34,050 bases of DNA, taken from assembly GCA_017534595.1 (NCBI GenBank), contig JAFXVY010000080.1, positions 1 to 34,050 of the forward strand, read 5' to 3'. The notes under the pieces are model-generated. The model had not been told where the DNA came from. It made no database searches and saw only the letters and a program-made list of their open reading frames with translations. Shown here piece after piece: positions 5,692 to 34,050 of this stretch. Each line of letters opens with the position of its first letter. Within the stretch, counting starts at the first letter, position 1. A program made the position numbers and the translations under genes. This DNA is from Ruminococcus sp. Its GTDB lineage: Bacteria; Bacillota; Clostridia; Oscillospirales; Ruminococcaceae.

Positions 5692-8142
5692 ATGCGAAAA
5701 AGATTTGTCAAGAATGAAAGAGGAACAGTTCTGCTGACAGTTCTTTGCTTTACTACGATGTGTATGGTGATCGCTGCGATCGCACTGAATGTTTCCAACA
5801 TTTCTACAGTCGATTCCACCAACAACGTAAAGAGGGCACAGGCTCAGATCACCGCAGAGCATTACCTCGAACAGTACCTCTCCACGTTCCCCACCGATCC
5901 CAAGACGGGAAGGACAAACTACGACGATCTGAAAAAGCTCGCCGTAGGCGATGAAGAGAAAGCAAGCGTTATCTCGATCAGCGTTGACGCCTCCGACGGA
6001 TCGATCGGCAAGGGGGCCAACATAAGCAGCGGGACACTTGATCAAACGGCTGCGTTCGGCGGAAACTGCAATATCTATGTTTATAAGCTGGATGCGAACG
6101 GCATCGTTGTAAAGTCTGTCGCTTCTTACGACGATCAGCAAGGCATGGCAAGTGCCTATTTCTACGGAGAGGTCCCCAACGTTGACCTCAACAAGAACGC
6201 AGTAGAGACCTGCGGTACCTATACTACCACTGAGTACGCTGCGGCAGTTGCCGGAGACGTTCTGCTCGAACTGGCGGATCCCACATCCGTAACGAGCTTC
6301 CACAACTCCAACGGCAGCTATTATTCGAACTTCTACACAAATGCGAACCTTCTTTTGGCCAAGAACACCCCTGTTTACTTCGGCGATACTCTGGCTATCC
6401 CCGGCGTTCGTCTTTCCAACGCTCCTACCATTACGGCGGTCGGCAATATATTCCTCGATCAGCTGAATATGAGCACTACCGTTGGTAAGACCGATGGTAA
6501 CGGTAACACTACGACCTATACCGGTACTTCCGGCACTACCTACAACAGGAAAGACCTGTTCAACAAGAACGGTTATATCAACAGCGATGCCAAGGTGTTC
6601 CTCACCAGAGGCGGAAACAAGATCGGCGACTCTACCAACCCGATCGACATCTATTGCCGCGGTATGGTCATCGGCGTTATACCTGATTGCTATAAGAGCG
6701 ATCCGGGCTTCAAGACCAAGTATGACAGCTGGAAGAGCGATATAACCAATAAGTTCAGCGGCGGCACCTTCGAGAAGGGCGACGTCAGCAGCATCTACGG
6801 AAATATCTATTCCTACAAGGCCAAGGCCGACGATCCTTATACCGACGGAACTGTTATCATCAACAGCAACAATACCACCACGATCCACGGCGACCTCTGC
6901 GTTGACGGAGACCTCGTGATTTACAGCAACCTTTCCTGCGACGGCGGTATCTATGTTACAGGTACTGTTTATACTATCGGTTCCGGCACTAACTGGACCT
7001 GCTACTATCCCAAATCTGACGGTTCAGGCGGAGTTGAAAAGAAGCAGAAGTCGGCCGGCGACTCTATCGAGAGCACTATCCCTCAGAACAAGAGATCCAA
7101 CAAGCCTTCGATGAAGTATGCTCCCGGCCTCTTCAACTGGGAGGATAAGGAAAAGAGAAATCCCGAGATCGTTCTTCCGAGCACATATAAGGAGAAGTCT
7201 CCTAACAATATGTTCGCCGATAACAACGAGGATTCCAAGTTCTTCAAGGATAGATTTAACGAAGCTCTCAAGGTAACTCTTGCCGACAAGATCCCGAGCG
7301 GCTCGACCATGGTTCCGGTTTGTCCTGAATATAACGCTTCTCAGGGCGATAAGTCCCTTGTCAGGATGAAGGATTATAGCTATGTTACAATCAATGCGAG
7401 CTGCCGTCTGACTCCGCAGCAGGTAGGCGATACTTCCTTTGCTTCGGATATAAACGGTACCAACGATTGCGGTATCAAGTACTATGTAAATGTACAGGAT
7501 AAGGATATCTGGATCCTGCTGCCTGTAGTAAACGGTGCGACCAGTAACACCATCTGGGCAAACTTCCGTGTAAGAAATGCCAACAACGGACATCACTGCT
7601 ACTTCGTATTCTATAATTACGAGAACGGCAAGCCGGCTGATTATTATACCAATCCGACTACCATGACCACTGCTGCGACCAATGCAGGCAAGTTCTACAC
7701 CTCGACTACCAACAATACCGTTTACTTCCCCGCTCCTCAGAAGGGCGAGGTGGTAAAGGACGGCATCAAGTTCGCTTCCACCACATTCTCGTCAAGCTTT
7801 GCAGCAGGTCTCGAGGATAAGGACGGAGACTGCAACATGGTAATGCTCGTTCCCGACGGCTTCAAAACCGACTTCGGACATTCCGGCGGCGGAGCAGAGT
7901 ACTCCAATCCTTTCCAGATGATCGTTTACGGCCCCAATGCCGATTTTGTGTATAATTCAAAAGCGGGCAACGTTAAGTTCTACGGTCAGGTAAAGGTAAA
8001 CTCCTATAAGGTTACCGGTAACGCTGATACTCCGTTCAGATACAACGAGCTCAGCAAGGACTCCATACTCCATAAGTACCTCACCAAGGCAAACAAGGAC
8101 GTAGGAAATGTATACTTCCAGTATTACATCAGACACAAGTGA
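5692..8142 (+). CDS. large PilX-like secreted pilus-associated protein
   Basis: This 816-residue protein has a short basic N-terminus (MRKRFVKNERG) and then a membrane segment at about residues 12-35 starting TVLLTVLCFTTMCM. That resembles PilX-type or class III pilin-like leaders, with a possible cleavage after Gly, but the Glu normally at +5 of mature pilins is a Thr. The remainder is a long polar, Asn/Thr/Tyr-rich extracytoplasmic region of the beta-sheet type, with no catalytic motif that I can see. The ATG at 5692 is preferred because AAGGTGG lies five bases upstream; the frame also opens at GTG 5683. It is followed after 19 bases by a true prepilin. It may be a tip or adhesin-type minor pilin, which is an inference from position and size. 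Confidence 0.75.
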   Translation: MRKRFVKNERGTVLLTVLCFTTMCMVIAAIALNVSNISTVDSTNNVKRAQAQITAEHYLEQYLSTFPTDPKTGRTNYDDLKKLAVGDEEKASVISISVDASDGSIGKGANISSGTLDQTAAFGGNCNIYVYKLDANGIVVKSVASYDDQQGMASAYFYGEVPNVDLNKNAVETCGTYTTTEYAAAVAGDVLLELADPTSVTSFHNSNGSYYSNFYTNANLLLAKNTPVYFGDTLAIPGVRLSNAPTITAVGNIFLDQLNMSTTVGKTDGNGNTTTYTGTSGTTYNRKDLFNKNGYINSDAKVFLTRGGNKIGDSTNPIDIYCRGMVIGVIPDCYKSDPGFKTKYDSWKSDITNKFSGGTFEKGDVSSIYGNIYSYKAKADDPYTDGTVIINSNNTTTIHGDLCVDGDLVIYSNLSCDGGIYVTGTVYTIGSGTNWTCYYPKSDGSGGVEKKQKSAGDSIESTIPQNKRSNKPSMKYAPGLFNWEDKEKRNPEIVLPSTYKEKSPNNMFADNNEDSKFFKDRFNEALKVTLADKIPSGSTMVPVCPEYNASQGDKSLVRMKDYSYVTINASCRLTPQQVGDTSFASDINGTNDCGIKYYVNVQDKDIWILLPVVNGATSNTIWANFRVRNANNGHHCYFVFYNYENGKPADYYTNPTTMTTAATNAGKFYTSTTNNTVYFPAPQKGEVVKDGIKFASTTFSSSFAAGLEDKDGDCNMVMLVPDGFKTDFGHSGGGAEYSNPFQMIVYGPNADFVYNSKAGNVKFYGQVKVNSYKVTGNADTPFRYNELSKDSILHKYLTKANKDVGNVYFQYYIRHK

Positions 8143-27966: not shown

Positions 27967-29442
<1,476 letters not shown>

Positions 29443-29452
29443 GGTGAGGCGA

Positions 29453-30673
29453 ATGAGAAAGACCAGGCTTTTAGCTCTGCTTGCCGCGCTGACGGTGTCG
29501 GTAACGGCATTCGTTTCCTGCGGCAGCGATGACAGCTCCTCCGGCGCGGAAACTACGACGACAGCTGCGGGTACACAGGCTCCCGCCGAAAGCACCGCCG
29601 ACTCAAAGGCCGAGCCCGACGCCTCCCTCGCGAGGACAGGTGAGATCCGTTCGCTTACGGCAGCTCAGCTCGTCGCCGAGATAAAGACCGGCTGGAACCT
29701 CGGCAACTCCCTCGACGCCTACGGCAATAAAGGCGTCCTCTCGGAGATCGCATGGGGCAACCCGAAGACCACCAAGGATATGATCGACGCGGTAAAGGCC
29801 AAGGGCTTTGACCTTATCCGCATACCCGTGACCTGGGGCGGGCACCTCGGCGAAGGCCCCGACTACACCGTTGATCCCGAGTGGTTCGACAGAGTGCAGG
29901 AGGTAGTCAACTACGCCTACGATAACGGGATGTATGTGATCATCAACTCCCACCATGAGGAGGACTGGCGAATCCCCGACAACAAGCATATAGAGGCCGT
30001 TGACGCGGAGGTAAAGGCGCTGTGGCTCCAGATCGCCGAGCGTTTTAAGGACTACGGCGACCACCTCATATTTGAGGGGCTCAACGAGCCGAGAGTCAAG
30101 GATGGCGCGAACGAATGGAACGGCGGCACCAAGGAGGGCAGAGAATGCGTCAACAGGCTCAACAAGACCTTCCTCGACGCTGTGCGCTCGACGGGCGGCA
30201 ACAATACGAACCGCCTGCTGCTGCTGACGACCTTCGCATCCTCCTGCGGCACGACTGCGATCAACGCGGCGGAGATCCCGCAGGACGAGCACGTCGGGTA
30301 TTCCATCCACGCATATACGCCTTACGCATTCACCTATAACGCCAACGAGTCGTGGGAGCTTTTCACCTGGGACGGCTCGCACGACACCGAGATACTGGGG
30401 ATGCTTTACAACCTCAAGGAGAGGTTTGTTGACAACGGCGTACCTGTCATCATCACGGAATACGGTGCGGTGAACAAGGACGGCAACGATGAAGAGGTAG
30501 CGAAGTGGGCGACCTGCTATCTCACCACGGCGAAGTCGGTAGGGATACCGTGTGTATGGTGGGACAACGGGTACTACACGACGGGCAACGAGCTGTTCGG
30601 TATATTCAACCGGAAGAAATGCGAATGGTACAGTAACACGGTAGCGGACGCGATCGTGGGCGTGTACAAATAA
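29453..30673 (+). CDS. surface lipoprotein GH5 endoglucanase
   Basis: This is a 406-residue cellulase of family GH5, most like subfamily GH5_4 (GWNLGNSLDAYG near the start and WGNPKTTKDMIDAVK). These enzymes cut cellulose, xyloglucan or mixed-linkage glucan. The acid/base is Glu212 in EGLNEPR, the nucleophile is Glu336 in ITEYGA, and the aromatic late motif is VWWDNGYY. A signal peptide ends at FVSC with Cys23 as the likely lipid anchor, followed by a Ser/Thr/Ala linker to about residue 60. No dockerin, CBM or sortase motif is present, so the enzyme is tethered to the membrane. The ATG at 29453 follows GAGGTGAGG, which overlaps the end of the GH51 gene. Confidence 0.95.
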   Translation: MRKTRLLALLAALTVSVTAFVSCGSDDSSSGAETTTTAAGTQAPAESTADSKAEPDASLARTGEIRSLTAAQLVAEIKTGWNLGNSLDAYGNKGVLSEIAWGNPKTTKDMIDAVKAKGFDLIRIPVTWGGHLGEGPDYTVDPEWFDRVQEVVNYAYDNGMYVIINSHHEEDWRIPDNKHIEAVDAEVKALWLQIAERFKDYGDHLIFEGLNEPRVKDGANEWNGGTKEGRECVNRLNKTFLDAVRSTGGNNTNRLLLLTTFASSCGTTAINAAEIPQDEHVGYSIHAYTPYAFTYNANESWELFTWDGSHDTEILGMLYNLKERFVDNGVPVIITEYGAVNKDGNDEEVAKWATCYLTTAKSVGIPCVWWDNGYYTTGNELFGIFNRKKCEWYSNTVADAIVGVYK

Positions 30674-30820: not shown

Positions 30821-31534
30821 TTGGAATTTAAAGACGTCGCTAATGTCTCTAAAATACTCCTCGAGTATCTCCCCAATACACTCAAACTGTTCTTCTTTAC
30901 CCTGCTCTTCTCGATCCCCCTCGGAGCAGTCGTCACATGGCTCAAAAAGTGTAAGTTCAAACCCGTGTCGTGGATAACAAATCTGTATATCCTCATAATG
31001 CGCGGTACACCCCTCATGCTGCAGATAGTCGCTGTGTATTATGCTATCCCCATGCTCGCCGCAGGCATCAAAAAGGACGGCGGCGACAGCTGGTTCGACA
31101 GGTTCATAACAGGTATAGATACCCGCTCGGATAACTATATGTTCATAGCCCTCGTCGTAGCGTTCGCACTCAATTACGCCGCCTACTTTGCCGAGATCTT
31201 CCGCGGCGGCATAGAGTCGATACCCAAAGGGCAGTACGAGGCCGCACAGATGCTCGGCATGACAAAGCCCCAGACATTTTTCAGGATCATCCTGCCGCAG
31301 GTCGTAAAGCGCGTTATCCCCGCGACTTCAAATGAGGTCATCGTGCTCGTGAAGGATACATCCCTCGCCACGATCATCGCCTATGCCGAGATCATGCTCA
31401 AGGCCAAGCAGATGATGAATACATACAGCTCGATCATCCCGCTGTTCATCGCAGGACTTTTCTATTTCGTCCTCAATGCGATAGTCACGCTGGCGTTCGT
31501 GCTGATCGAAAAGCACTACGCATATTATAAATGA
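30821..31534 (+). CDS. polar amino acid ABC transporter permease
   Basis: This is the membrane subunit of an importer of the His/Glu/Gln/Arg family. Its 237 residues show about five membrane segments, an early RGTPLMLQIVAVYYAIP block typical of the family, and the EAA loop EAAQMLGMTKPQTFFRIILPQ that docks the ATPase. The start is TTG at 30821, supported by CGGAGGTG six bases upstream and a consensus promoter. The ATPase gene follows after 15 bases. The solute-binding protein usually encoded alongside is not in the window; its gene may be elsewhere. Substrate is not certain; glutamine or cystine types are both possible. Confidence 0.94.
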   Translation: MEFKDVANVSKILLEYLPNTLKLFFFTLLFSIPLGAVVTWLKKCKFKPVSWITNLYILIMRGTPLMLQIVAVYYAIPMLAAGIKKDGGDSWFDRFITGIDTRSDNYMFIALVVAFALNYAAYFAEIFRGGIESIPKGQYEAAQMLGMTKPQTFFRIILPQVVKRVIPATSNEVIVLVKDTSLATIIAYAEIMLKAKQMMNTYSSIIPLFIAGLFYFVLNAIVTLAFVLIEKHYAYYK

Positions 31535-31549
31535 TCGGGAGAGACCGCT

Positions 31550-32311
31550 ATGGCTATACTTGAAGTTAACAATCTTTCAAAGAGGTTCGGAGACCTCGAG
31601 GTGCTGCGCGATATCTCCTTCTCGGTGGAGGAGGGGCAGGTTGTTTCGATAATCGGGCCCTCCGGCTCGGGCAAATCCACTCTGCTCAGATGCATAAACC
31701 AGCTCGAACGCGCCGACGGCGGCGAGATAAATGTCTGCGGGATGAATATGATGAAGACCGCAGACGGCAAGGCTGTCTATGCGCCGAAGAAGACTCTCCG
31801 CGAGATACGTCTGCGGATAGGTCTCGTGTTCCAGAATTTCAATCTGTTCCCCCACAAATCGGTTATGGAGAATATCATCGAGGCGCCCGTCCATGTGCTG
31901 AAAAAGGCTAAGACGGAGGCGGTCTCCGAGGCCAATGAGCTTATCAGGAAAATGGGTCTTACCGGCAAGGAGAAGAGCTATCCCTGCGAGCTTTCGGGCG
32001 GTCAGCAGCAGCGAGTTTCCATAGCCCGGGCGCTGGCGCTCAAGCCGGATGTGCTGTTCTTCGACGAGCCCACCTCGGCGCTCGACCCCGAGCTCACCGG
32101 TGAGATACTCAAGGTCATCAAGGAGCTCGCGGAGGAAAAGATGACCATGGTGATAGTCACTCATGAAATGGAGTTCGCCCGCGATGTTTCCAACCACGTT
32201 ATCTTTATGGACGGCGGCTTCATCGTCGAGGAGGGCGACCCTGCGGAGCTCTTCGGCAACACTCAGAACGAGCGTACCAAGCAGTTCCTCAAGCGCTTCA
32301 AGGGGATGTAA
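31550..32311 (+). CDS. polar amino acid ABC transporter ATPase (GlnQ family)
   Basis: This cytoplasmic ATPase energises the permease encoded just upstream. The 253 residues have Walker [10 protein letters not shown] (residues 36-44), a Q loop in [10 protein letters not shown], the signature [15 protein letters not shown], Walker [14 protein letters not shown], and the switch His in IVTHEMEFA. This order and the length are those of the GlnQ/HisP group. The ATG at 31550 has GGGAGAG upstream. A bidirectional terminator follows the gene. Confidence 0.96.
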
Positions 32312-32318
32312 AAAACGA

Positions 32319-32363
32319 CTGCTGCACGGCACCGGTCAGACGGTACTGTGCAGCAGCTTTTTT
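32319..32363. terminator. bidirectional terminator shared by the ABC operon and the RT gene
   Basis: CTGCTGCAC (32319-32327) pairs with GTGCAGCAG (32348-32356), and the stem extends inward by several pairs with one mismatch. On the plus strand CTTTTTTT follows; on the minus strand TCGTTTTTT follows. The RT stop codon (32336-32338) lies within the loop region. Confidence 0.9.
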
Positions 32364-33550
32364 TGTTTGTGATATTCGGCGGCAAGGCTTCTGTACCCCA
32401 GCTCTTTGAGGTCGGAGTACCTTACCCGGAAGCGGGAGGCGGTGCGCTTTCCGCTTATGAGATAGCGCAGGCAGTCCTGAGCGTAGCGGTCGATGCTCCT
32501 AAGTGAGCGGTCGGTGTTTATCACGGGGAAATACCACCTTGCCCAGCTCAGGTCGTTGTCGGAGGGCGCGTCGAACAGCTTGCTGTTGAAGATGCGTATA
32601 AACGATACGGCGGCGTTCTCGGGTTCTATCTTCTTGCGCTGCTGCCAGCGTTTGAGCGCCCGGCACTTGCGGCGCATCTTGGCTTTGAGCTTTCTCACCG
32701 AAGCCGGAGCGGCGTCGATGCAGCCGCCTTGATAGCTCAGCCCGAGGAACACGAATCCCTCATCCGGGGCGGTGAAGCACTCCTTATCGGGGTTTATGGA
32801 CAGCCCGAGGGAGGCGGCGGTGTCTCTGACGGTCTGAGCGAGGCGGTGTATCTCCTGTTCTGTCTCCGCGAAGCAGACGATATCGTCGGAATAGCGGGCA
32901 TAGGGTATGCCCTGCGAGGCGAAGTGCTCATCGAGCCCGCGGAGGTAGATGTTTGCGCAGAACGCAGAGATGGGTGTACCCGCCATCATGCCTTTCTGCT
33001 CGGTGACGATGCTGCCCCTGTCGCTGACGCGGGGCTCTTTGAGCAGCGCAGACAGGAACCCGAGCAGCCGGGGGTCATCCTTTAAGGTCTCCCCGAGCAT
33101 TGAGAGCAGTATGCCGACATCGGCGGAGTTGAAGTAGTTGCTGATATCGGCTTTGTAGCACCACAGCTTATCAATGCCGGGTCTGCGGGCGAGGCTTAGA
33201 AAGCCCTGTGCGGCGGTACGCGCCGGGCGGAAGGAATAGAGGTTATCCGAGAAGATGCCGTCGTATTTTCTGAGCATCAAAAATGTCAGCATTTTGAGCA
33301 CTGTATTCTCCGGCTCGGGGTAGGTGTAGACGGTACGCTTCTTGGCGGTATCGAGCTTACTGATAAGGCTTTTTCCCGGCAGGGGGAACTCCTCACCGCG
33401 ATTTATCCTTTCGCAGACGGGGAGGTACTCCTTCCCGTCGGTAAACTCTCTCAGCCTTTGCGAGAACCGTTTGGTACAGCAGAGCGAGGTCTTATAGCGA
33501 TAGAAGCTCTCCCAGCACCCGGGCTCCGAGAGCATATCCAAGAGTGACAA
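32336..33550 (-). CDS. stand-alone reverse transcriptase of unclear group
   Basis: This 404-residue RNA-directed DNA polymerase has the palm motifs in order: YSFRPARTA (105-113), CYKADISNYFNS with catalytic Asp135, KGMMAGTPISAFCANIYL (186-203), and YARYSDDIVCF with Asp222 and Asp223. The active site reads YSDD in place of the YADD common in group II introns. A basic helical thumb follows (285-310), and the C-terminus includes LRYLISGKRTASRFRVRYSD and LKELGYRSLAAEYHK. I see no maturase or HNH domain and no Cas1 fusion, so it is not an obvious intron or CRISPR-linked RT. The start TTG at 33550 has GGAGGTG seven bases upstream, just after the stop of the small gene before it. Confidence 0.9.
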   Translation of the reverse strand: MSLLDMLSEPGCWESFYRYKTSLCCTKRFSQRLREFTDGKEYLPVCERINRGEEFPLPGKSLISKLDTAKKRTVYTYPEPENTVLKMLTFLMLRKYDGIFSDNLYSFRPARTAAQGFLSLARRPGIDKLWCYKADISNYFNSADVGILLSMLGETLKDDPRLLGFLSALLKEPRVSDRGSIVTEQKGMMAGTPISAFCANIYLRGLDEHFASQGIPYARYSDDIVCFAETEQEIHRLAQTVRDTAASLGLSINPDKECFTAPDEGFVFLGLSYQGGCIDAAPASVRKLKAKMRRKCRALKRWQQRKKIEPENAAVSFIRIFNSKLFDAPSDNDLSWARWYFPVINTDRSLRSIDRYAQDCLRYLISGKRTASRFRVRYSDLKELGYRSLAAEYHKQKKLLHSTV

Positions 33551-33566
33551 TCCCCGGCACCTCCGA

Positions 33567-33872
33567 TCACTGTCTCAGCACCGAATAATATGCGGTGACA
33601 TGGCGGCGCTTGCCGTTCCCGTCGTCGGCCTTGATATCGACGCCGTTACGGCTCATGAGCTCAGCGGCGATGCAGCCGTCGAGCAGGCAGCGGAAGACCT
33701 CTTTGCCGTCGCAGACTATAATGAGCTCGCTCTCGGTGACGGATATCCCGCCCTTTCGGCCGATAACTCTTTCGCCGTTCCCGTCCCTTTCCGAGACATA
33801 GGACAGTCTTTTGCCGTGCAGCTTTTCGAGCTCGCTGCGCGGTGTACCTTTTTCTTTCTTCTTGAAAAACAC
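33567..33872 (-). CDS. small unknown protein coupled to the reverse transcriptase
   Basis: I do not recognise this protein of 101 residues. A basic N-terminus (FFKKKEKGTPRSELEKL) is followed by a strand-rich part with RKGGISVTESELIIVCDGKEV and a short C-terminal block ending VTAYYSVLRQ. No membrane segment or catalytic motif is visible in this form. GTG at 33872 is preferred because AAGGAGA lies nine bases upstream; an ATG at 33953 would add 27 residues but has no ribosome binding site. The RT ribosome binding site begins two bases after its stop codon and the RT gene 16 bases after it, so the two proteins are made together and probably work together. Confidence 0.75.
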   Translation of the reverse strand: MFFKKKEKGTPRSELEKLHGKRLSYVSERDGNGERVIGRKGGISVTESELIIVCDGKEVFRCLLDGCIAAELMSRNGVDIKADDGNGKRRHVTAYYSVLRQ

Positions 33873-33979
33873 TTGCGTTATTCTCCTTTTGAACGAGGGG
33901 ATAAGTGTACAGGCAACACCGCACAACCACCGGCTAACGCCTTTGTACATCATCCGCTTGCATATTTTCCGTCATATTA

Positions 33980-34026
33980 CCCAAATTCTCCTTGCCTTGC
34001 GCCAGCAAGGCGGCGTCGAATTTAGG
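33980..34026 (-). other. structured non-coding element upstream of the RT operon
   Basis: On the minus strand CCTAAATTC (34018-34026) pairs with GAATTTGGG (33980-33988) with one G-T pair. Enclosed is a perfect 7-bp hairpin GCCTTGC, loop TGGC, GCAAGGC (33994-34011). It ends about 108 bases before the small gene's GTG. It could be a terminator of a gene beyond the window, a leader structure or part of a non-coding RNA used by the RT. The window ends here, so the full extent is unknown. Confidence 0.45.
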
Positions 34027-34050
34027 CAATCTGACGAAAAATCTGACTGC

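What the first reader, a model, noticed from the sequence alone, without database searches (positions are those of the whole stretch)
32336..33872. Two-gene unit: small unknown protein plus stand-alone YSDD reverse transcriptase
The sequence shows a complete RT palm with Asp135 and YSDD at 220-223, without maturase, endonuclease, integrase or Cas1 parts, translationally coupled to a 101-residue protein I cannot place. Known stand-alone bacterial RTs without mobility domains are mostly retrons, diversity-generating elements or defence RTs (Abi, DRT/UG groups). The AGTPISAFCANIYL motif differs from the intron form (QG..SPLLANIYL) and from the DGR form (SQ..AN). So this is a candidate undescribed RT system, with the small protein as possible partner, toxin or regulator.
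Basis: partly seen in the sequence, partly recalled or inferred. Interest (0 to 1): 0.72.

Follow-up and report, generated by a model that had tools for sequence, protein, structure and literature searches.

The report
Reverse transcriptase split from its RNA
The gene is a reverse transcriptase of a known but uncharacterised bacterial group (UG26); in close relatives it usually sits behind a small protein gene and a structured RNA, but in this genome those two lie elsewhere, and the small gene beside it is an unrelated neighbour.

Summary
The RT is real: 404 aa, complete palm, D135 and YSDD 220-223. It is a clear member of PADLOC group RT_UG26 (E 5e-167). The adjacent 101-aa protein is not its partner: none of 12 RT homologue loci carries it and its homologues lie elsewhere. 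The real companions are a ~165-aa protein, PADLOC RTasCOG2852, and a structured RNA, Rfam RF03026, RT-5. In 70 of the 80 closest named loci the order is protein, RNA, RT. Of 297 family genomes the protein is found in 12 of 13 UG26-positive ones and, as a strong hit, in none of 284 others; in a wider class draw 10 of 16 UG26 genomes lack it. In the window's genome and three relatives the protein-RNA pair lies on another contig. The RNA covaries strongly, pseudoknot included. Likely working: RT and RT-5 RNA form an RNP in trans that makes cDNA, with the protein as cofactor or effector; defence is plausible but unshown. UG26, its COG2852 link and RT-5 were each catalogued before; joining them and the unlinked layout are added here. 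No structure prediction was possible.

The parts
32336..33550 (-). UG26 reverse transcriptase, 404 aa, TTG start; catalytic D135 and YSDD (220-223)
   Evidence: invariant residues
33558..33564 (-). Shine-Dalgarno-like GGAGGTG, 7 nt before the RT start codon
   Evidence: sequence printed
33567..33872 (-). 101-aa ORF: a neighbour, NOT part of the RT system; conserved protein that in relatives lies elsewhere, often beside or near Maf
32311..32364 (.). inverted repeat with A/T tails between the converging RT and ABC-transporter genes; probable two-way terminator
   Evidence: I1

Best explanation
The window holds the RT of a three-part system: RTasCOG2852 protein, RT-5 RNA (RF03026) and UG26 RT. 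In the layout of most close relatives, probably the ancestral one, a cassette reads protein, RNA, RT. In this genome the RT is separate: it is on C127 (the window) and the protein-RNA pair is on C34. Shown: what the parts are, that they occur together, the RNA fold by covariation, and that the RNA is kept when it is not next to the RT. Inferred: the RT binds RT-5 RNA as a diffusible RNP and copies part of it into cDNA, as DRT2, DRT9 and DRT10 do with their RNAs. The partner, with an amphipathic N-terminus and a domain that PADLOC labels COG2852 but that does not keep most DUF559 catalytic residues, would serve as cDNA/RNA-binding cofactor or effector. Defence against phages is the most likely purpose but is not shown. 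Rough odds: membership 0.95, RNP in trans 0.75, RT-5 as template 0.5, defence 0.5.
For: RT_UG26 553.6 bits against 104.9 for the next model. 16 UG26 rows fall on one side of a branch, 100/99. Partner profile: 12 of 13 UG26-positive and, by strong hit, 0 of 284 other family genomes; five of the 12 (G000, G282, G071, G246, G192) did not seed that profile and are not in cassette order with the RT. The Rfam model, made without my data, rings in 9 of 227 family genomes, all nine UG26-positive. Of the 80 closest named loci, 70 read partner-RNA-RT, and 74 have the RNA within 600 nt upstream. No partner-RT gap is under 157 nt in 77 distinct gaps. The RNA pairs in 92.5% of 3373 cells against 81.0 in shuffles and 34-50% when slid. 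RNA and partner lie together on another contig than the RT in four genomes. RT, partner and RNA distances correlate over 61 systems (r 0.26-0.40; 0 of 2000 permutations as high). PADLOC files both proteins under DRT.
Against: No activity, RNA binding, cDNA or phage data. 130 neighbour proteins of 38 loci show no clear run of defence genes, only scattered PADLOC matches. UG26 was not found on plasmids at E 1e-20 (at 1e-3 the limit of 5000 records was reached, all under 60% identity), not confirmed in viral contigs and not matched closely in phages. Of 16 strong UG26 genomes in the class search 10 lack a detectable partner, and 3 of those 10 also show no RT-5-like element in the stretch fetched; so neither is strictly needed, or both diverge beyond detection. 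This genome's RT-5 copy fits my structure poorly in the alignment (31 of 44 pairs). For single systems RT and partner distances agree weakly (median rank correlation 0.14). The COG2852 fold rests on PADLOC's label; my comparison with DUF559 was not convincing. Many of the genomes are fragmented MAGs.
Confidence: 0.62

Rival explanations
1. RT-5 is only a cis element (leader or attenuator) that controls expression of the RT gene downstream of it.
For: The RNA profile match ends within 30 nt of the RT in 45 of 74 loci, and in many elements of the alignment the closing stem is followed by a T-run like a terminator.
Against: In G000, G282, G071 and G246 the RNA stays beside the partner on another contig, not upstream of the RT. 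It keeps 41 and 39 of 44 pairs in L122 (G282) and L123 (G071), though only 31 in L121 (G000) as aligned; L124 (G246) was not counted. A pseudoknotted core with so much covariation is more than a terminator needs.
Confidence: 0.15
2. A domesticated housekeeping retroelement rather than a phage-defence system: the RNP makes a cDNA used in the host's own regulation or repair.
For: Mixed, ordinary neighbours; no UG26 found on plasmids or viral contigs at the limits used; parts kept in the same genomes even when unlinked.
Against: Patchy spread: 13 of 297 family genomes and 16 of 391 class genomes, more like defence than housekeeping; PADLOC files both proteins with DRT.
Confidence: 0.3
3. One reading: the 101-aa protein is the RT's own partner, toxin or regulator.
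For: Adjacent, same strand, 16 nt apart in the window.
Against: None of 12 RT homologue loci carries it; 38 of 297 genomes have it, including all 5 of the genus in that draw, two of them without a UG26 RT; in six of seven relatives examined it lies beside or near Maf.
Confidence: 0.03

Closest known systems
UG26 RTs / PADLOC RT_UG26 with RTasCOG2852 (DRT, uncharacterised as far as seen)
   Same: Same RT group end to end, same partner family (4 of 4 partner proteins scanned)
   Different: In this genome RT and partner are unlinked. PADLOC models proteins; the RNA link was made here
RT-5 RNA (Rfam RF03026)
   Same: The RNA in the cassette; 10 of 10 loci tested pass the gathering score, including the C34 locus of this genome
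   Different: Here a 6-bp pseudoknot, an outer closing stem and the tie to UG26 and RTasCOG2852 are described; whether the Rfam family or its original paper has these I have not seen
DRT10 (UG17): ncRNA, SLATT protein, RT
   Same: Three parts: structured ncRNA, small accessory protein, UG RT (PMC12632851, passages)
   Different: Other protein (SLATT against RTasCOG2852), other order (RNA upstream of SLATT), other RT group; here parts may be unlinked
DRT2 and DRT9
   Same: RT with a structured ncRNA (PMC12632851 and PMC12483538, passages)
   Different: Different RT groups; RTasCOG2852 is not mentioned in the passages seen
Retrons
   Same: RT plus structured RNA plus, often, an accessory protein (partly recalled)
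   Different: NCBIfam retron St85 model far below its cut-off (38.3 against 235 bits); no evidence of msDNA

Membership tests
UG26 RT (PADLOC RT_UG26) | End-to-end match to the group's profile, best by far | tested here: met
   E 5e-167, residues 2-398 of 404; next model 104.9 bits
UG26 RT (PADLOC RT_UG26) | Grouping with other UG26 RTs, apart from group II intron RTs | tested here: met
   16 rows on one side of a branch, 100/99; unrooted tree, no labelled retron, DGR or other UG references; a weak member (L106) falls inside
UG26 RT (PADLOC RT_UG26) | Catalytic D and YxDD intact | tested here: met
   D135, Y220, D222, D223 invariant in 69 rows
DRT system with RTasCOG2852 | RTasCOG2852 gene beside the RT | tested here: not met
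   No partner-profile match in the window, which ends 500 nt upstream of the RT; one copy elsewhere in the genome, G000:C34:63210-63695
DRT system with RTasCOG2852 | Protects against phage | not testable with these tools
   needs bench work
RT-5 RNA RF03026 | Covariance-model score over the gathering cut-off | tested here: met
   65.0 bits against 45.7 at C34 of this genome; none in the window
Class 2 DRT (ncRNA-templated) | RT copies its own structured ncRNA into repetitive cDNA | not testable with these tools
   Associated RNA present; templating inferred only
Retron | Retron RT family match | tested here: not met
   St85 model 38.3 bits, cut-off 235; TIR model 12.7, cut-off 600
Group II intron | RT/maturase equivalog score and intron RNA | tested here: not met
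   113.7 bits, cut-off 300; no intron RNA at gathering score in the window
DGR | Template and variable repeats near the RT | tested here: inconclusive
   Only one 15-nt direct repeat pair in 32000-34050; the contig ends 500 nt upstream; no DGR reference was labelled in the tree
COG2852/DUF559 nuclease (partner) | Significant homology to DUF559 and its conserved residues | tested here: not met
   hhalign probability 1.3%, E 0.039. In that alignment E125 falls on the invariant DUF559 E54; D43, D56, G57, H60 have no matching conserved residue. Eight DUF559 rows only; PADLOC's label COG2852 stands against this

The most novel reading that the evidence does not exclude
UG26 is a three-part retroelement whose templating RNA and RT act in trans. 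The unlinked layout in this genome and three relatives is a natural experiment showing that RT-5 is a diffusible RNA component rather than a cis leader, and the partner is a catalytically altered nuclease-like, membrane-touching effector, a kind of RT effector not known to me. With no defence neighbourhood and no mobile carrier found, it may be a domesticated cellular retroelement rather than a defence system.
Probability: 0.25. Interest if true: 0.7.

Novelty: new variant of a known kind. Interest (0 to 1): 0.45.

Why it matters
Catalogue entries that stand apart (an RT group, an associated protein family and an RNA family of unknown function) turn out to be one system, with named strains in which it could be tested (Ruminococcus flavefaciens MA2007, YL228, YRD2003). 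The unlinked genomes argue that the RNA works in trans. They also warn that looking only beside the RT can miss or, as in the finding, misassign the partner.

Tried and rejected
Rejected: the 101-aa protein as partner. Group II intron and retron membership. RT_UG17 as the nearest group: that model scores about as well on several other RTs, so its place means little. RT_UG27 was matched end to end by UG26 members and by none of the seven other RTs (E limit 1e-20), a hint that UG27 is the sister group, not tested further.

Led nowhere: genome-contig scan with the single protein (nothing confirmed); viral contigs (16 pattern matches, none confirmed); solved-structure search with the partner profile (none up to E 5); Pfam and NCBIfam on the partner (only insignificant hits). 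Papers: UG26 with reverse transcriptase (3 papers, one relevant: PMC10504277, passages); RF03026 or RT-5 RNA; COG2852 with reverse transcriptase; RTasCOG2852, UG27 and the like (20 papers, the 12 listed not about bacterial RTs); the 224-RNA paper title with retron (one citing paper, listing only). The UG/Abi classification paper and the RT-5 discovery paper are not held; what I say of them is recalled. The library is partial, so I do not claim that the UG26/RT-5 link is absent from print.

By construction, and rows dropped: 7 of the 12 family hits seeded the first partner profile; all 6 class hits, this genome's included, seeded the second, so only the absence in 375 others is news there. UG26 status means an E-value of 1.8e-85 or lower and 38% identity or more, not a PADLOC scan of each; the other 52 of 65 genomes with an RT match there had weaker ones and were set aside. 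In one search, three of 19 matches (E 1e-40 to 1e-42) were not counted as strong. The RNA profile was built from partner-RT gaps. The RNA alignment A4 holds 78 of 92 non-redundant elements; the 14 left out are L033, L096, L099, L124, L135, L138, L145, L152, L157, L159, L184, L196, L201, L204. In one search L126, L144 and L185 were dropped as duplicates. The PADLOC partner model found nothing in 11 UG26 genomes without partner, and the tool warned that nothing rang anywhere in that search. The neighbour scan took 38 of 80 loci, at most two ORFs a side, none over 700 aa.

Full report
What is in the window. The - strand ORF 33550..32336 encodes 404 aa from a TTG codon. It is a full-length match to PADLOC RT_UG26 (553.6 bits, E 5e-167), far above the next models (generic RT 104.9, RT_UG17 97.4, RT_UG4 94.9, RT_UG27 89.7). 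The group II maturase and retron models stay well under their cut-offs. In an unrooted tree of 34 RTs, 16 UG26 rows fall on one side of a branch (100/99), apart from the group II and Cas1-linked RTs; the tree has no labelled retron, DGR or other UG references. A search of the genome with this RT gives one match, itself. The window is the whole of contig C127, which ends 500 nt upstream of the RT.

The small gene is a bystander. Its 101-aa product matches no Pfam, NCBIfam or PADLOC family (PHROGs only at E 0.075). Of 297 genomes drawn from the family, 38 encode a homologue, including all five genomes of the same genus, two of which have no UG26 RT. In the five other genomes that have both, the two genes are on different contigs or, in G113, 0.7 Mb apart. 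None of 12 RT homologue loci has it in the stretch fetched, and among 107 RT loci scanned, window included, it is found only in the window. In seven relatives examined it lies directly downstream of a gene that reads as Maf in three (L044, L050, L051) and near Maf in three more (L046-L048); in L045 no Maf was seen in the 1.5-kb flanks (the name Maf is recalled from the sequence, not from a call). The 16-nt spacing to the RT in the window, with a GGAGGTG box, is a local arrangement.

The real companions. Upstream of the RT in 7 of the 12 family-level homologues lies an ORF of about 160-210 aa with a start that reads like MGLLxKLF. A profile of these seven, run over the same 297 genomes, hits 12 genomes strongly (E 5.2e-41 or lower), all among the 13 with a UG26-like RT; the thirteenth (G226) lacks it. 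None of the 284 others has a strong hit; two have weak partial ones (G156 4.7e-5, G292 1.4e-4). Five of the 12 (G000, G282, G071, G246, G192) were not used to build the profile and are not in cassette order with the RT. In a class-level draw of 391 genomes a 17-row profile hits 6, all UG26-positive and all among its own seeds, and none of the 375 genomes without a strong UG26 match; 10 of the 16 strong UG26 genomes have no hit. The PADLOC model also finds none in those ten or in G226, with the tool's warning that nothing rang in that search. PADLOC names the protein RTasCOG2852, a DRT component: 4 of 4 proteins scanned, E 2e-56 for this genome's copy.

Between that gene and the RT there is a gap: 77 distinct gaps, 157-748 nt from the partner's last codon to the start of the RT match, none shorter. 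The gap holds an RNA that Rfam knows as RT-5, RF03026: 10 of 10 loci tested score over the gathering cut-off. A genome search with the Rfam model, which owes nothing to my alignments, rings in 9 of 227 family genomes, all nine UG26-positive (the listing does not show whether the other four UG26 genomes were among the 227). The RT alignment found 545 relatives in named genomes, of which the best 80 were kept. Of these 80, 70 read partner, RNA, RT on one strand, with the RNA between the two in all 70; 3 have the RNA but no partner; 1 has the RNA with its best partner hit downstream (L184, which holds two partner-like ORFs, one of them upstream); 6 have neither nearby.

The split. In this genome the partner is at C34:63210-63695 (-) and RT-5 follows it at C34:63075-63179 (65.0 bits, cut-off 45.7), while the window has no RT-5. 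The same holds in G282, G071 and G246. In G192 the pair lies about 3 kb from the RT on the opposite strand of the same contig. Distances between RTs, partners and RNAs correlate over 61 systems (r 0.36 RT-partner, 0.40 RT-RNA, 0.26 partner-RNA; 0 of 2000 permutations as high). The window's RT and its unlinked partner share two of their three nearest relatives (L031 and L129); the RNA's nearest are L127, L132 and L037. Rank correlations for single systems are weak (median 0.14) and near zero for L032 and L036, so this supports common descent broadly, not in each case. G000 has 144 contigs, 93% completeness and 1.1% contamination, so a misbinned contig cannot be wholly excluded for any one genome; the same pattern in four makes it unlikely in general.

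The RNA. On 78 of 92 non-redundant elements I scored a structure with a closing stem of 11 pairs, a small hairpin of 3, a core of two stems (4 and 8 pairs) and an inner hairpin (4), a 6-pair pseudoknot between a 5' segment and the loop of the inner hairpin, and a 3' hairpin (8). Of 3373 cells 92.5% pair, against 81.0 (sd 0.3) in shuffles and 33.7-50.3% when the partner strand is slid; 376 cells change on both sides against 97.1 (sd 8.5). The pseudoknot pairs in 99.6% of cells, with double changes in 4 of 6 pairs. The structure was drawn from these sequences, which favours it over the slid versions. RNAalifold returns the closing stem, the core stems and the 3' hairpin; it gives the small hairpin another 3' strand, inside my pseudoknot, and does not predict the inner hairpin. 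This genome's own copy (L121) fits 31 of 44 pairs as aligned; its outer stem looks misaligned by eye.

The partner. Its last ~110 residues hold the conserved part (invariant P70, F86, E125, R149, Y151, GWWN 156-159, Y163 in 69 rows). COG2852 is, from recall, the Vsr/DUF559 nuclease-like group. A profile comparison with eight DUF559 proteins aligned the two as that would predict, but unconvincingly (probability 1.3%, E 0.039), and of the DUF559 residues in reach only E54 meets a conserved one (E125); the others are not kept. The first 11 residues are amphipathic (mean moment 0.51 against 0.30 shuffled; 68 of 69 above their own shuffles), which could mean membrane contact. No structure could be predicted.

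Setting. A scan of 130 neighbour proteins from 38 of the 80 loci shows mixed, ordinary genes. Thirteen PADLOC families appear at E 1e-10, eleven of them in one protein each (AriA, three RmrA models, a CARF and two PDC models among them); the commonest, mad3 with 8 proteins, is for the member shown an ABC transporter, and Pfam finds 8 ABC_tran proteins in the set. One hit is RTasCOG2852 itself, probably the second copy in L184. No UG26 RT was found on plasmids at E 1e-20; at 1e-3 the limit of 5000 records was reached, all under 60% identity, with most of those listed annotated as group II intron RTs. Phage records give 7 distant matches of 20-26% identity; the viral-contig scan confirmed none. 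A published survey reports UG26 in cold-seep viruses (PMC10504277, passages seen), which my scans neither found nor exclude.

How it probably works. UG RTs studied so far include DRT2, DRT9 and DRT10, which copy a structured ncRNA into repetitive cDNA; DRT10 adds a SLATT protein (PMC12632851, passages). The layout here is alike in kind: RT, structured RNA, small protein. Another paper says that the Class 2 systems studied thus far rely on ncRNAs encoded in cis (PMC13174585, passages). Because the RNA here is kept beside the partner and away from the RT in four genomes, it most likely acts in trans as a component of an RNP. That UG26 belongs with Class 2, that RT-5 is the template, and that the partner is effector or cofactor, are inference; so is defence.

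What is known and what is added. UG26 and its associated COG2852 protein (both in PADLOC) and RT-5 (in Rfam, whose name itself points to reverse transcriptases) were described before. I found no held paper that joins them, but the main papers are not in the library.

Noticed in passing
L184:4280-4789 and 6953-7507: Two RTasCOG2852-like ORFs flank one UG26 RT.
   Followed up: no
L044, L046-L048, L050, L051: The 101-aa protein belongs to a conserved, unnamed family next to or near Maf in these loci; the window's copy matches no Pfam family.
   Followed up: partly
L092-L096, L098, L103, L040: UG26 RTs with an RT-5-like element (L093 1.2 kb and L095 7.3 kb away) but no detectable partner; the RNA-RT link may be older than the partner link.
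   Followed up: partly
L105, 886-215 nt before the RT: A 223-aa ORF stands where the partner would be, with transposase-like ORFs (by eye) upstream; only a very weak partner-profile hit (E 0.93).
   Followed up: no
L121:7034-7063 (-): A 13-pair terminator-like hairpin with a T tail follows the RT-5 RNA in the split locus of this genome (3 such sites found, 2.3 expected in shuffles).
   Followed up: no
window 27970-30673: By eye, an arabinofuranosidase-like and a cellulase-like gene lie upstream of an amino-acid ABC transporter pair (30821-32311); no family search was run.
   Followed up: no
L018, L021, L026, L028, L029: A separate group of solitary RTs (100/98) in the same family, below NCBIfam cut-offs, not assigned here.
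   Followed up: no
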